Assembly: GCA_023374045.1 (NCBI GenBank)
Contig: CM041779.1
Coordinates: 273,233,258-273,297,257, forward strand
DNA: 64,000 bases
Reading direction: 5' to 3'
DNA from: Limonium bicolor
Taxonomy: Eukaryota; Streptophyta; Magnoliopsida; Caryophyllales; Plumbaginaceae
The position numbers and the translations under genes were made by a program. The notes below the pieces were generated by a model. The model was not told the DNA's origin and did no database searches. It worked only from the letters and a program-made list of their open reading frames with translations. Shown here one piece after another: positions 42,098 through 54,337 of this stretch. Numbering within the stretch: the stretch's first letter is position 1; every line of letters starts with the position of its first letter.

Positions 42098-43084
42098 CTA
42101 ATACACAGCTCCTGAGTAAGTACTTTGATATATGATGGGGTCTAAGAGCATTCACTTTCATAACAATAATGCTTCATTGATGAGGTGATCTCCTTTCAGA
42201 TGTCCAAACAATTACAATACTAGTACTTTCTAAAAGTCAAAACTATAATTCCTGGTTTCAGGTGAGTGGTGTTTATCACTGGGTCGAAGGTGCTGTGTTT
42301 AGTTTATCCTCTTAATTCCATGGTATAGCAACCTTGACTTTCCACCCATTACTAAAACATCTCCTGAACTCAATATGATTTTCTTTGCAAGGTCCACACG
42401 CTTCTGCTCGCCATAAAGGAACTCTGCGTCATCTCCAATTGACAAAGATAATACTGGTATCCCTGTTCAAGGGACCCTTTTGTTTCATCATTGTCCTGGT
42501 GTAGTCCTAAACGGCCTCCTTCTTCATAGAAGTTGATGATACATAGATCAGCCCTTAGATTGGGAACTGGATCTTCTTCTAGCTGTTGAGCTGTATTAAC
42601 TGCTTGTTCCACAATTGTAAAAATTTCTTCTGGATTTTTGGTACTTGTGCTCCATCTCCATTTCTTGTATCTTGGTAGGTCTTTGTGTAAGGATTCCAAT
42701 CCTTTCCTAAGCACATCATTTTCAGCTTCATCTTTGATCCTCCTGGAAATTCTGGAGTGTAGAACCCTCCTGGTCCTGCTCCCAATTCTTGACATTTTCT
42801 AATGATTGCAATTTGTGTCTCCGGTGTTAGGTATCCTTTGAGTAGTATCAAACCTGGTTGGATAACCTTACATTGTTCGTTCCCTGGTTCTTGTACTTTG
42901 ATAATTTTCTCTCCAGGGAGGGCGGTGAGGGGATAGGAAAGCATATCTTATAGCTTCCTACGTGGTTTAAATTTTACTAGTGAGTCTTACTAATTCTTTC
43001 CTACTCAATTAGGCAATCAAGGCATGCAAGCACTCATTCACATCATCCATTGCTCAATAACAGGTTCACATGGTTTAGAAATAC
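42098..43084 (-). other. Putative gag-protease intron holding the AlkB domain, copy A
   Basis: On the minus strand it has CCCAG|GTATTTC at the donor and TTAG|GTTGTGC at the acceptor, 987 nt. Both flanking exons are in phase 1, so removal would fuse the end of gag (STNPG) to the start of protease (CAKETEG). Tekay-1 has a donor at the matching place and phase (9830). Confidence 0.6.
42220..42944 (-). CDS. AlkB-like 2OG-Fe(II) dioxygenase, copy A, frameshifted
   Basis: From ATG at 42944 to the stop at 42220, about 240 codons, close to a full plant AlkB domain. The order is MLSYPLTALPGEKIIKV, QPGLILLKGYLTPETQIAII, GSKMKLKMMCLGKDWNP, INFYEEGGRLGLHQDNDET (NxY and iron-binding HxD at 42493-42501), then the distal YHG. 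It ends in VLTFRKY, where copy B shows the Rx5R motif. A one-base loss near 42635, another after the LEQG segment and one after HGIKRI break the frame; copy B is intact at the second. The family removes alkyl groups from RNA or DNA bases using 2-oxoglutarate. Unlike Tekay-1's dead copy, its catalytic residues are present. No host-like introns are seen within it. Confidence 0.85.
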
Positions 43085-44466
43085 CTGGGTTGGTAGAAGG
43101 ACCAGCCTCATCTGAGCGGTCCATGACATGTAGGGCGGGTCCCGATGCTGGGCCTTTGCCCTTATACCCCTGAGCCTGGTTTGTTGGTGGAGGGCGAGTA
43201 TCGCTAGCTCCATTCTTTGGCCTGTGTTTGGCTTTGCTCCCGGGCGGTAGTTCCTGCTCTCCGGGTTTCGGATACACTCGAAGGCACGATGCCCGAGTAT
43301 CTGACAGTAGCGGCACATGACTTTCTCCCCTTGGCAGTCTACGCCGGGGTGATCCTTTCCGCACTGTTTACAGTTGAAACGGCGGACATACTTCTGGCCC
43401 GTGTTTGAGCCATGTCCAGAACCTAATACAATCAAGGTAATTATACATCCCACGGTACTGAAGTAATCACAAAGTTTCAAATCTAACTGTCTGATTAGAG
43501 TGCCTACCCTTAGATGGGTAGGTTTTCTGTGAAGTTGCTGCTCCGTGGGTTCCTGACTGGGGGTTCCCAGTAGTTTGGTTCCCTTTCCCTTGATAGGACC
43601 CCTGGCCTTTCTGATAGGGTTTGTTCCTCTGTTGGAGTTCCCCTGCTTGGCATCTTCGCCACCAGGTCCGTCCTTCCTCTTTTGGGAGCTCAAAGCATCC
43701 CTTCTCTTACAAGTGATCTCCACCACGGAGGCGCATGATAGCATTCCTGAAATCTCAAGGTATTAATCTCCAATTCTCCCATGACGGGGTATAGTAGGTA
43801 ATAAATTTTTAACTGGTTTATGTTTCTCTCCTGTTTTACCTGCAACTGGTAGGGATGATTGGTCCCATCCCAAACTGAAGTCGAGGGCTCAGTCCCCCGT
43901 AGAACCGGTCGACCAACACCTGGTCCGAGTATCCTATACCGGGTAATAGTCGAGTAGCGAAGTGAACTTCGCATAGTACTCATCAACGGTCATCTTTCCC
44001 CGTCTGCTCGGGCGTCAAACTCCCTAGTCTTCACCATCCTGGTGTGGGCCGGGTAGTATTTGCCCCTAAGTAGTGCAGTGTAATGTCCCCAAGTAAAAGC
44101 TGGGTCATCCAGGTGGTCGGCTTTCACCATGTTCCACCAATCTCTAGCTGCATCCTTCAGATAAAAGGCAGCAAGTCTTACTTTTTCCCTTCCTGGGACT
44201 GCAAGCGTCTCGAACGCTGTCTCCATCTCCATGATGTAGGTCTCTAGTGAGCAGGGTCAGTCTGCCCCTTGAATGCAGTCGGCCTCAAATCAGCCAAACT
44301 CTTCACCCAGTCTCTCTCTCCTGGGTGGTGGTGGTGGAGGTAGCTGCTGCTGCTGTGCAACCCCCCCCGCCTGTGCAAATGCCTGAGCGATTAAGGTGGC
44401 AATGTCTGCCAGCCTGATGTTTGGCTCCTCATCAGCCTGTCCACGTCGTCCTCCTCTTCCTGACAT
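43085..44466 (-). CDS. gag: Tekay gag, copy A (three exons by inference), frameshifted
   Basis: Inferred exons on the minus strand are 44466-43840, 43746-43508 and 43422-43085. Exon 1 starts MSGRGGRRGQ and has the capsid signature FETLAVP, AAFYLKDAARDWWN and LLRGKYYPAH. Exon 2 is basic and glycine-rich (KRKDG, GKGNQTTG type), likely nucleic-acid binding. Exon 3 has two CCHC zinc knuckles (CKQCGKDHPGVDC, CRYCQILGHRAFEC). The gaps have GT-AG ends and keep frame. Several one-base indels break exon 1. Gag forms the particle that packages the RNA. Confidence 0.82.
43423..43507 (-). other. Putative gag intron 2, copy A
   Basis: AAGG|GTAGGCAC donor and GTATTAG|GTTCTGG acceptor on the minus strand, 85 nt. 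Removal joins the basic exon to the zinc-knuckle exon in frame (phase 1). Confidence 0.6.
43747..43839 (-). other. Putative gag intron 1, copy A
   Basis: Donor CAG|GTAAAACAGG and acceptor TTTCAG|GAATGC, 93 nt, at the same protein position as the intron at 7840-7912 of Tekay-1. Confidence 0.7.
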
Positions 44467-44630
44467 CTGCAGGATGTTGAGGTATATTAGGCACTGTGGT
44501 CAAAATCTTGGTCTTGGATAGTAGTCTAAGTAAAACTAACTTAAACTCCTTTCAATACTATCTCTCAACCCTTAACCTAAGTCTTAGATATCCTAATCTC
44601 GGTGTATCCTTGTATCCAGAGCGTAACTAC

Positions 44631-52900: not shown

Positions 52901-53354
52901 TTATAGACGGTGCTCTAGGGGGCTGACGGTAAGATACTGTCACTCCTGATGATGGCTCTTAAGCAACAGTCTGCGCTCTGCACAAAGAATGCGGCCTCTG
53001 TGCCGCCCCAGCCAGTCCATCCCGCTATAACATCGAATCCTAGACCTCTGAACTCAATAAGGTCAATAGGAAATTCCTCCTCCTTAATACTGATAGTGGC
53101 TCCTCTATAAAGACGAGTGCAACTGATCTTCTCCTTAGACGGGAGTGCCACCTTAAAATCAGGTAACTCTACAGCGTCTAGCCCCAACTTCCCCGCAAGC
53201 GAAGGCGAAACGAAAGTATGTGAGGCTCCGGAGTCGAACAGTACTAATGCATCCACTCCATTAACCGGAAAGGTACCAGTGAGGATCGCGCCGCCCTTGC
53301 TGGCCTCCTCCTCAGTAAGTATACTTAAGGCACCTTCCGTCTCCTTAGCACAAC
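49984..53354 (-). CDS. pol: Tekay pol, copy B: protease, RT, RNase H, integrase, chromodomain; frameshifted
   Basis: The better-preserved copy, from 53354 to the stop at 49984, about 1,120 codons. Protease: LVLFDSGASHTFVSPSLAG (near 53210-53250). RT: the segment 52943-52284 holds GYIRPSVSPWGAPVLFVKK and SKIDLRSGYHQI, with the catalytic FIDDIL near 52222-52242. One long frame, 52069-50474, covers the RT thumb, RNase H (CDASGRGLG), the integrase finger and core (DFVVGLPPTRGG, IVSDRDTRF, HPQTDGQSER). The last segment, 50472-49984, has the GPY/F block (KFVGPYAIIERVG) and the chromodomain. Breaks near 53020, 52940, 52330, 52110 and 50473 are one- or two-base indels. Start is the inferred splice acceptor, as no ATG precedes the protease in frame closely. 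Confidence 0.9.
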
Positions 53355-54337
53355 CTAATAACAGAATCTGAGTAAGTACTTTGATATATGATGGGGTCTA
53401 AAGACATTCACTTTCATAACAATAATGCTTCATTGATGAGATGATCTCCTTTCAGATGTCCAAACAATTACAATACTAGTACTTTCTAAAAGTCAAACTT
53501 AATCTTCCTGGTTTCATGTGAGTGGTGTTTCACTGTCGAAGGTGCTGTGTTTAGTTTATCCTCTTAATTCCATGGTATAGCAACCTTGACTTTCCACCCA
53601 TTACTAAAACATCTCCTGAACTCAATATGATTTTCTTTGCAAGGTCCACACGCTTCTGCTCGCCATAAAGGAACTCTGCGTCATCTCCAATTGACAAAGA
53701 TAATACTGGTATCCCCTGTTCAAGGGACCCTTTTGTTTCATCATTGTCCTGGTGTAGTCCTAAACGGCCTCCTTCTTCATAGAAGTTGATGATACATAGA
53801 TCAGCCCTTAGATTGGGAACTGGATCTTCTTCTAGCTGTTGAGCTGTATTAACTGCTTGTTCCACAATGGTAAAAATTCTTCTGGGATTTTTGTACTTGT
53901 GCTCCATCTCCATTTCTTGTATCTTGGTAGGTTTTTGTGTAAGGATTCCAATCCTTTCCTAAGCACATCATTTTCAGCTTCATCTTTGATCCTCCTGGAA
54001 ATTCTGGAGTGTAGAACCCTCCTGGTCCTGCTCCCAATTCTTGACATTTTCTGATGATTGCAATTTGTGTCTCCGGTGTTAGGTATCCTTTGAGTAGTAT
54101 CAAACCTGGTTGGATAACCTTACATTGTTCGTTCCCTGGTTCTTGTACTTTGATAATGTTTTCTTCCAGGGAGGGCGGTGAGGGGATAGGAAAGCATATC
54201 TTATAGCTTCCTACGTGGTTTAAATTTTACTAGTGAGTCTTACTAATTCTTTCCTACTCAATTAGGCAATCAAGGCATGCAAGCACTCATTCACATCATC
54301 CATTGCTCAATAACAGGTTCACATGGTTTAGAAATAC
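53355..54337 (-). other. Putative gag-protease intron holding the AlkB domain, copy B
   Basis: Donor CCCAG|GTATTTC and acceptor TTATTAG|GTTGTGC on the minus strand, 983 nt, phase 1 on both sides. The gag frame otherwise stops 14 codons past the donor (EQWMM). The AlkB stop codon lies about 120 bases before the acceptor. Confidence 0.6.
53476..54197 (-). CDS. AlkB-like 2OG-Fe(II) dioxygenase, copy B, frameshifted
   Basis: Same protein as copy A, from the ATG at 54197 to the stop at 53476. Iron ligands are HxD at 53746-53754 and the distal histidine of YHGI near 53572. The Rx5R motif that binds 2-oxoglutarate is visible as GRLSLTFRKY at the very end. INFYEEGG holds the NxY element, and PVLSLSIGDDAEFLYGEQKR and SGDVLVMGGKSRL are core strands of the domain. 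Frame breaks occur near 54160, near 53880 and between YHGI and GRLSL. The match is strongest to plant AlkB proteins of the bacterial AlkB/ALKBH1 type and ends exactly where those end, so a whole host-type coding region, without introns, was probably captured. Confidence 0.88.

What the first reader, a model, noticed from the sequence alone, without database searches (positions are those of the whole stretch)
42220..54197. An AlkB-like demethylase is a built-in module of a Tekay chromovirus retrotransposon family
Seen: between the gag zinc knuckles and the protease, both internal copies encode a near-complete AlkB domain, with NxY and HxD (HQD at 42493-42501 and 53746-53754), a distal YHG histidine, and GRLSLTFRKY (Rx5R) in copy B. 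Known: AlkB proteins remove methyl groups from RNA or DNA; AlkB domains occur in some plant RNA-virus replicases; m6A on plant retrotransposon RNA restricts mobility and a host ALKBH9-type demethylase promotes it. I know of no AlkB domain as a standard part of Ty3/gypsy elements. Inference: the element carries its own eraser for methyl marks on its RNA or cDNA, as a counter-defence.
Basis: partly seen in the sequence, partly recalled or inferred. Interest (0 to 1): 0.96.

Follow-up and report, generated by a model that had tools for sequence, protein, structure and literature searches.

The report
ALKBH1-type demethylase inside a plant retrotransposon
A plant retrotransposon in this window carries, between its coat-protein and enzyme genes, a frame-broken relative of the rice DNA-adenine demethylase ALKBH1, which likely once removed methyl groups from the element's own RNA or DNA copies; a different demethylase was already known in orchid retrotransposons, so this looks like a second, separate capture.

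Summary
In detail: both internal copies of a chromodomain-bearing Ty3/gypsy element (minus strand, about 33,393-60,749) encode an AlkB domain between gag zinc knuckle and protease (PF13532, best E 4.4e-30). Corrections: (1) Not unprecedented: Phalaenopsis Tat/Ogre-like elements encode an ALKBH5-type m6A RNA demethylase (PMC9289625). (2) This AlkB is of another type: sequence, fold of a relative, and trees put it with plant ALKBH1, whose rice member removes 6mA from unpaired DNA; no ALKBH5 or FTO chain was hit by sequence. (3) The copies are not independent: they are two internal regions of one LTR-int-LTR-int-LTR array, neither with an intact AlkB frame as assembled. Family support comes from five proteins of unnamed contigs, 64-71% identical over the C-terminal piece, context unread; one ends where copy B meets a stop. 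New here: stops around the AlkB frame plus in-phase splice signals suggest one gag donor joined either to AlkB (own stop) or to protease-pol. Most likely a captured ALKBH1-type eraser, made as spliced Gag-AlkB and acting on single-stranded replication intermediates. Splicing, activity and benefit are inferred. New variant of a known kind.

The parts
55900..60749 (-). LTR 1 (5' end of the array)
   Evidence: Self-BLAST; starts TGAAATACC, ends GGGGTGTTACA
49490..55899 (-). internal region, copy B
55884..55895 (-). primer binding site TGGTATCAGAGC, copy B (match to tRNA-Met recalled)
   Evidence: that script's printed motif positions are one too high; corrected here
55340..55753 (-). gag N-terminal part, copy B
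   Evidence: ORF; weak Ty3_capsid hit, E 8.5e-4, below cut-off
54296..54697 (-). gag zinc-knuckle part, copy B
   Evidence: ORF; weak zf-CCHC, E 0.026, below cut-off
54337..54337 (-). predicted splice donor CAG|GTATTT ending the gag exon, copy B (copy A: 43084)
   Evidence: best of 18 GT sites (A: best of 19), phase 1
54211..54337 (-). predicted intron between gag and AlkB, copy B (copy A: 42958-43084)
   Evidence: stops in all three frames, 63.8% A+T, 30.7% T
53476..54210 (-). AlkB exon, copy B, ending in TAG after FRKY; frame-broken inside
   Evidence: PF13532; OsALKBH1; acceptor at 54210 in phase
42220..42957 (-). AlkB exon, copy A; frame-broken in more places
   Evidence: PF13532; frames
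53746..53754 (-). HQD, iron-binding HxD of copy B (copy A 42493-42501)
53354..53354 (-). predicted acceptor TTATTAG|G opening protease-pol, copy B (copy A 42097)
   Evidence: best of 9 AG sites in B, phase 1; fourth of 11 in A
52915..53397 (-). protease (RVP_2), copy B
   Evidence: E 6.7e-18; no Met in the protease frame over the 140 codons read after the predicted acceptor
52284..52958 (-). reverse transcriptase N-terminal part, copy B
   Evidence: RVT_1 E 2.1e-12
50474..52114 (-). RNase H and integrase, copy B
   Evidence: RT_RNaseH E 1.8e-34, Integrase_H2C2 E 1.3e-17, rve E 2.4e-6 (below cut-off)
49984..50508 (-). integrase C-term SH3 and chromodomain, copy B
   Evidence: SH3_Tf2-1 E 5.9e-27, Chromo E 6e-6 (26.5 bits, cut-off 25.1)
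44647..49489 (-). LTR 2 (shared middle LTR)
38241..44646 (-). internal region, copy A
33393..38240 (-). LTR 3 (3' end of the array)
   Evidence: TTCT next to both outer ends of the array

Best explanation
A chromodomain-bearing Ty3/gypsy retrotransposon of a plant carries an AlkB domain of the plant ALKBH1 type between gag and protease, and it likely acquired this domain from a host ALKBH1 gene and used it as its own nucleic-acid demethylase. Predicted expression: one splice donor at the end of the gag exon is joined either to an acceptor in front of AlkB, giving a Gag-AlkB protein that ends at AlkB's own stop, or to an acceptor in front of the protease, giving Gag-Pol; unspliced RNA would be the genome. 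Inferred action: fused to Gag, the enzyme would sit in or near the virus-like particle and remove 6mA or alkyl marks from single-stranded cDNA, RNA-DNA hybrids or genomic RNA, the unpaired substrates that ALKBH1-type enzymes prefer. Shown: domain, place, subtype, stops and phases. Inferred: capture, splicing, activity, benefit.
For: PF13532 hits in both copies. Best solved-structure match of both copy B pieces is rice OsALKBH1, E 3.4e-33 and 3e-24; no ALKBH5/FTO chain at E up to 1. Nearest proteins P0001-P0005 keep NxY, HxD and distal H in 5 of 5, as does copy B. AlphaFold model of P0002 (pLDDT 87) matches OsALKBH1 first (E 1.5e-29, 50% identity), ALKBH5 only from rank 41 at 16%. Plants plus TE-like rows split from bacteria at 98/93 (C piece) and 100/100 (N piece). 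Expression: three-frame stops both between gag and AlkB and between AlkB and protease, in both copies. In copy B the AlkB frame reaches its conserved FDICxP-like start (YKICFP) with no in-frame Met before residue 77, and the protease frame has none in the 140 codons read. The best gag donor (1 of 18) is phase 1, as are the only AG after the last in-frame stop before AlkB and the best AG before protease in copy B. The predicted non-coding stretches are T-richer (30.7-36.4%) than the exons (15.5-25.9%). Rice ALKBH1 acts on unpaired DNA and R-loops (PMC10469495, abstract and passages).
Against: Neither AlkB copy is intact as assembled. Of 18 substitutions listed between the two AlkB exons only 4 are silent in the copy B frame, many of the rest in clusters, which gives no support for selection. 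In copy A an ATG (42942-42944) is in frame with the N-terminal AlkB piece, so an own start cannot be excluded. No transcript was available. Splice scoring uses recalled frequencies; a donor this strong occurs in 337 of 4000 random window stretches and an acceptor this strong in 844 of 4000. In copy A the protease acceptor ranks fourth of 11, and an out-of-phase acceptor before AlkB scores higher than the one used here. No AlkB protein with gag or pol Pfam domains was found among proteins of about 440-1400 aa (16 hits of 208 candidates). TE-like rows do not form one clade in the best trees, though one clade is not rejected (p-AU 0.47 and 0.15). The host is unknown.
Confidence: 0.4

Rival explanations
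1. Passenger: one element captured a piece of host ALKBH1 transcript or gene by chance, the array copied it, and it has no function for the element.
For: Both copies belong to one array and both are frame-broken; P0001 may share a lesion with copy B; 4 of 18 A/B substitutions in the AlkB exon are silent. LTR elements of rice and sorghum with captured host genes are on record (title and abstract start of PMC3726574). None of the named proteins found was of the TE-like type.
Against: P0001-P0005, 64-71% identical over the C piece, keep NxY, HxD and distal H in 5 of 5, and P0002 spans the whole domain as one ORF. The AlkB stretch sits at the gag/protease border, with phases that keep both products readable. 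Part of the damage resembles assembly noise.
Confidence: 0.33
2. RNA m6A eraser as in the orchid elements: the domain demethylates the element's RNA and frees it from m6A-dependent restriction.
For: The orchid Gypsy AlkB removes m6A from ssRNA in vitro (PMC9289625). A review states that demethylating ONSEN RNA is critical for its release from stress granules (passage, PMC12786077).
Against: Subtype: closest to OsALKBH1, no ALKBH5 hit by sequence; fold of the relative P0002 ranks ALKBH5 far below. The element is a chromovirus, not Tat/Ogre.
Confidence: 0.15
3. Separate second ORF: AlkB is translated on its own, from an internal or subgenomic mRNA, not as a spliced Gag fusion.
For: AlkB has its own stop codon; in copy A an ATG at 42942-42944 is in frame with the N-terminal AlkB piece; the orchid AlkB is a separate ORF2 (PMC9289625).
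Against: In copy B, whose frame aligns through YKICFP with FDICYP of P0002, that ATG is out of frame, the first in-frame Met is residue 77 and stops lie directly upstream.
Confidence: 0.22
4. P0001-P0005 are ordinary ALKBH1 genes or retrocopies of non-angiosperm plants; the window's copy is a one-off capture in such a plant.
For: The 16 angiosperm host rows used (of 28 found), monocot and dicot, form one side of the tree (93/99 C piece, 100/99 N piece) that leaves out the window and P0001-P0005. Their contigs are unnamed.
Against: P0002 is one ORF across the whole domain with the host FDIC motif; that host ALKBH1 genes are split by introns is recalled, not tested. Fast evolution in an element could give the same tree.
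Confidence: 0.25

Closest known systems
Phalaenopsis Gypsy_Pa_2799 family with paALKBH5-like ORF2 (PMC9289625)
   Same: A plant Ty3/gypsy LTR element carrying an AlkB-family 2OG-Fe(II) domain with HxD..H and RxxxxxR; demethylase activity shown there in vitro.
   Different: There: Tat/Ogre relative, 25.5 kb, PBS antisense to tRNA-Arg, AlkB of ALKBH5 type in a separate ORF2. Here: chromodomain element, about 11.25 kb repeat period with 4.85 kb LTRs, TGGTATCAGAGC PBS, ALKBH1-type AlkB between gag and protease.
Plant ALKBH1, rice OsALKBH1 (PDB 5xeg, 5xoi; PMC10469495)
   Same: Closest solved sequence; closest fold of the relative P0002; same catalytic motifs.
   Different: The window and P0001-P0005 lack the 8-9 residues that 18 of 19 sampled host rows carry before the catalytic strand (the two bacterial rows lack them too) and lie outside the angiosperm host rows.
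[quoted passage not shown]
   Same: Partial splicing used by plant LTR elements to balance products.
   Different: Here the predicted choice is between an accessory enzyme exon and the protease-pol exon, from a single gag donor; prediction only.
AlkB domains of plant RNA viruses (Alphaflexi-, Betaflexi-, Closteroviridae; as stated in PMC9289625)
   Same: Mobile genetic element with an AlkB domain proposed to protect or alter its nucleic acid.
   Different: Unrelated carrier; the viral domains were not compared here.

Membership tests
AlkB-type 2OG-Fe(II) dioxygenase (PF13532) | Profile match above the curated cut-off | tested here: met
   3 of 4 pieces above cut-off, copy B best at 105.8 bits against 31.2; the copy B N-terminal piece (24.7 bits) is below
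AlkB-type 2OG-Fe(II) dioxygenase (PF13532) | HxD...H and NxY motifs | tested here: met
   Copy B has them in one frame; P0001-P0005 in 5 of 5. Copy A has them split over frames
AlkB-type 2OG-Fe(II) dioxygenase (PF13532) | Rx5R in the last strand | tested here: inconclusive
   Copy B has it beyond two in-frame stops, copy A lacks the first Arg; P0002, P0003 and P0004 have it, P0001 and P0005 end before it is complete
Plant ALKBH1 type | Nearest solved relative is ALKBH1 | tested here: met
   OsALKBH1 best for both copy B pieces
Plant ALKBH1 type | Falls inside the angiosperm ALKBH1 rows | tested here: not met
   the 16 host rows exclude it at 93/99 and 100/99; it is sister or basal to them
ALKBH5/9/10 (m6A RNA eraser) type | Sequence match to ALKBH5-type chains | tested here: not met
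   No ALKBH5 or FTO chain at E up to 1; structural rank 41, 16% identity, by proxy P0002
Chromovirus (Ty3/gypsy) | Chromodomain after integrase; order PR-RT-RH-INT | tested here: met
   Chromo E 6e-6, 26.5 bits against 25.1; domain order
Tekay clade | Reverse-transcriptase tree with Tekay references | not tested
   No reference sequences at hand
Tekay clade | Chromodomain upstream of the PPT, tRNA-Met PBS, long LTRs | tested here: inconclusive
   All agree (compared with PMC3605345 passages) but do not exclude other clades; LTRs of 4.85 kb exceed the Tekay examples there (1.0-3.0 kb)
Orchid Gypsy_Pa_2799 family | Tat/Ogre relative with separate ALKBH5-like ORF2 | tested here: not met
   Chromodomain present, ALKBH1-type AlkB, position between gag and protease
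Functional demethylase | Demethylation in vitro | not testable with these tools
   No assay; window copies are frame-broken

The most novel reading that the evidence does not exclude
A chromovirus lineage captured, independently of the orchid elements, an ALKBH1-type DNA-adenine demethylase and makes it as an alternatively spliced Gag-AlkB protein that enters the particle and cleans methyl or alkyl marks from its single-stranded cDNA: a retrotransposon eraser that works at the DNA rather than the RNA stage.
Probability: 0.23. Interest if true: 0.85.

Novelty: new variant of a known kind. Interest (0 to 1): 0.6.

Why it matters
If real at family level, AlkB erasers entered plant LTR retrotransposons at least twice, from two host subfamilies (ALKBH5-type and ALKBH1-type) and into two element lineages. 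That convergence would say that base methylation is a real pressure on these elements. The ALKBH1 type points to DNA, R-loop or RNA-DNA hybrid stages and makes the disputed role of plant 6mA testable. A predicted Gag-AlkB splice form would be a new way for a retrotransposon to deliver an accessory enzyme.

Tried and rejected
Own-genome search: the genome search (own, PF13532) was asked ten times and never answered, so copy number, host ALKBH genes and other insertions could not be read.

Viral contigs: the copy B C piece found no relative; the TE-like alignment found three loci at 32-35% identity, not followed. Genome contigs gave 70 loci, all titled as bacteria, best Acidobacteria at up to 41-43%; eight of the 70 were used as outgroup.

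Gag-based search for relatives: none of 543 candidates at E up to 1e-8.

Homology of the P0002 N-terminus with the predicted intron: inconclusive (32 of 500 shuffles and 17 of 400 random window places as good); not used as evidence.

dN/dS between copies: not computed. Of 18 substitutions listed in the AlkB exon 4 are silent in the copy B frame, two fall in stop codons, and most of the others lie in clusters, several next to gaps; too few and too noisy for a test.

Two further intron-like stretches in gag (54,679-54,766, weak donor score 0.75, and 55,007-55,098, donor score 5.31) were noticed but their frames are too damaged to settle.

Rfam: nothing at gathering thresholds.
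Full report
What is there. On the minus strand, about 33,393-60,749, lies LTR-internal-LTR-internal-LTR with period about 11,252. The LTRs are 4,850, 4,843 and 4,848 bases and 96.6-97.3% identical counting gaps. TTCT lies next to both outer ends, which fits one insertion or one tandem product; four bases are weak evidence. The internal regions hold weak capsid and zinc-knuckle matches, then protease, RT, RNase H, integrase and a chromodomain. 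A TGGTATCAGAGC primer site lies four bases after the LTR and a purine run just before the next LTR (printed motif positions there are one too high).

The AlkB domain. In both copies it lies between zinc knuckle and protease and is found by PF13532. Both copies change frame inside the domain, and copy B has two in-frame stops between YHG and GRLSLTFRKY. In the internal regions 35 of 48 single-base gaps between the copies fall in homopolymer runs, where 44% of bases lie, and in all three LTR pairs gap openings exceed mismatches, so part of the damage may be sequencing error. But the internal regions show 96 substitutions against 60 gap events, and P0001 ends at ..KRIN, where copy B meets its first stop after YHG, so some damage may be real and shared.

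Which AlkB. Both copy B pieces match rice OsALKBH1 best among solved structures (E 3.4e-33 and 3e-24). The C piece also hits bacterial AlkB and animal ALKBH1. No ALKBH5 or FTO chain appears among the 22 distinct hits of the C piece or the single hit of the N piece at E up to 1. In the protein database 19 of 80 candidates passed E 1e-5: five unnamed TE-like proteins, twelve named plant proteins and two unnamed ones that look bacterial. Identities of the C piece to the five are 64-71%, to the plant host proteins 35-63%. Of the five, only P0002 spans the whole domain; the others are partial. A second search in the 440-1400 aa range gave 16 named plant proteins of 208 candidates, none with gag or pol among the listed Pfam domains (the last nine residues of the piece lay outside the scored region). 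Uniref names among these hits include DNA N(6)-methyladenine demethylase.

Trees were made per piece. One search used 19 of the 28 host proteins, one search used 16 of 28 (near-duplicates, odd models and long branches left out by my choice), with eight of 70 bacterial loci as outgroup. Plants plus TE-like rows stand against bacteria at 98/93 (C) and 100/100 (N). The 16 host rows, which include the monocot Dioscorea and dicots, form one side at 93/99 (C) and 100/99 (N), leaving the window and the TE-like rows outside (five in the C tree, three in the N tree). The TE-like rows are not one clade in the best tree but this is not rejected (p-AU 0.47 and 0.15). In the alignment 18 of 19 host rows have 8-9 residues before the catalytic strand that 0 of 6 TE-like rows and 0 of 2 bacterial rows have. 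So the captured gene is old, fast-evolving or from a non-angiosperm donor; these were not separated.

Structure. P0002 folds well (pLDDT 87.1) and matches OsALKBH1 first (E 1.5e-29, 50% identity), then E. coli AlkB, then ALKBH1; ALKBH5 begins at rank 41 with 16% identity. This is a relative, not the window's own protein.

How it may be expressed. Between gag and AlkB (127 nt) and from AlkB's stop to the protease acceptor (124 nt in B, 125 in A) all three frames hold stops in both copies. In copy B the AlkB frame begins with GSYKICFP, which aligns with FDICYP of P0002 and corresponds to FDIC of host proteins, and has no Met until residue 77; the protease frame has none in the 140 codons read. 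So in copy B neither can start on its own AUG without losing conserved parts. In copy A, which differs by indels nearby, an ATG at 42942-42944 is in frame with the N-terminal AlkB piece; I take copy B's frame as the older one because of its match to P0002, but an own start is not excluded. The strongest of 18 GT sites in the last gag exon (54337) is phase 1. The only AG after the last in-frame stop before AlkB (54210) and the strongest of 9 AG sites before protease (53354) both need phase 1. In copy A the protease site ranks fourth of 11. An AG at 54253 scores higher before AlkB but would run into in-frame stops. The predicted non-coding stretches are T-rich, 30.7-36.4% against 15.5-25.9% in the exons. 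The scoring tables are recalled approximations; sites as strong occur in 337 of 4000 (donor) and 844 of 4000 (acceptor) random window stretches. I take this as a reasonable prediction, not a demonstration. In beet chromoviruses gag and pol are one continuous ORF (passage of PMC3605345). Splicing in plant LTR elements is known for Ogre (passage of PMC6317226) and Ty1/Copia EVD (passages of PMC8892269).

Function. [quoted passage not shown] Reverse transcription makes single-stranded DNA and RNA-DNA hybrids (established knowledge), so a Gag-linked ALKBH1-type enzyme would meet its preferred substrates. That it erases host marks as a counter-defence, repairs alkyl damage, or counters chromatin repression cannot be told apart here.

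What is known. PMC9289625 (I read abstract to Results, and Discussion; not its references or supplements) found a 2-ODD domain only in two Phalaenopsis species among 121 angiosperm genomes, in Tat/Ogre-like elements, ALKBH5-type, active on m6A ssRNA. My literature searches for AlkB, ALKBH1, 2OG, Tekay and chromovirus combinations list no paper that, by title and abstract start, reports an ALKBH1-type domain in a chromovirus; some searches listed only the top 20, 20 and 12 of 1,470, 94 and 1,104 papers, and this library lacks most subscription papers. PMC13317346 (2026 review) has no mention of AlkB (term search).

Host. Unknown. A GT47 exostosin-domain exon at 29,734-30,261 resembles plant IRX10 xylosyltransferases (recalled).

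Verdict. Observation confirmed, interpretation partly supported, a new variant of a known kind.

Noticed in passing
33393-60749: Tandem LTR-internal-LTR-internal-LTR array with about 0.8-1.5% substitutions between units; TTCT next to both outer ends suggests one insertion followed or accompanied by LTR-LTR recombination.
   Followed up: partly
54679-54766 and 55007-55098 (copy A about 43423-43507 and 43747-43839), minus strand: Two further intron-like stretches (GT...AG) inside gag; if real, the gag of this element has several introns, unlike the single continuous gag-pol ORF described for beet chromoviruses (PMC3605345 passage).
   Followed up: partly
P0001, end of protein; copy B about 53554: P0001 ends at ..YHGVKRIN, the same place where the window's frame after YHGIKRIN meets a stop; a shared lesion or an error-prone spot.
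   Followed up: no
29734-30261, plus strand: Exon of a GT47 exostosin-domain protein (Pfam E 1e-30), likely a plant IRX10-like xylosyltransferase (name recalled); the only host-gene exon recognised among the five non-array ORFs checked.
   Followed up: partly
61806-62216, plus strand: ORF with a CX2CX4HX4C zinc-knuckle motif (CHLCKQPSHYDAKC), probably gag of another retroelement; no Pfam hit.
   Followed up: no
8425-9418 and 32095-33085: Inverted pair of about 1 kb at 72% identity, probably two old copies of another repeat.
   Followed up: no
10980-11232 and 20177-20435: Short tandem repeats (shifts of 18 bases) shared between two distant places, reading KRHLF-like on the minus strand.
   Followed up: no
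L004-L009: Acidobacterial AlkB genes are closer to the TE-like plant AlkB P0002 (37-43%) than most other bacterial AlkB genes in the list over comparable spans (about 28-36%).
   Followed up: no
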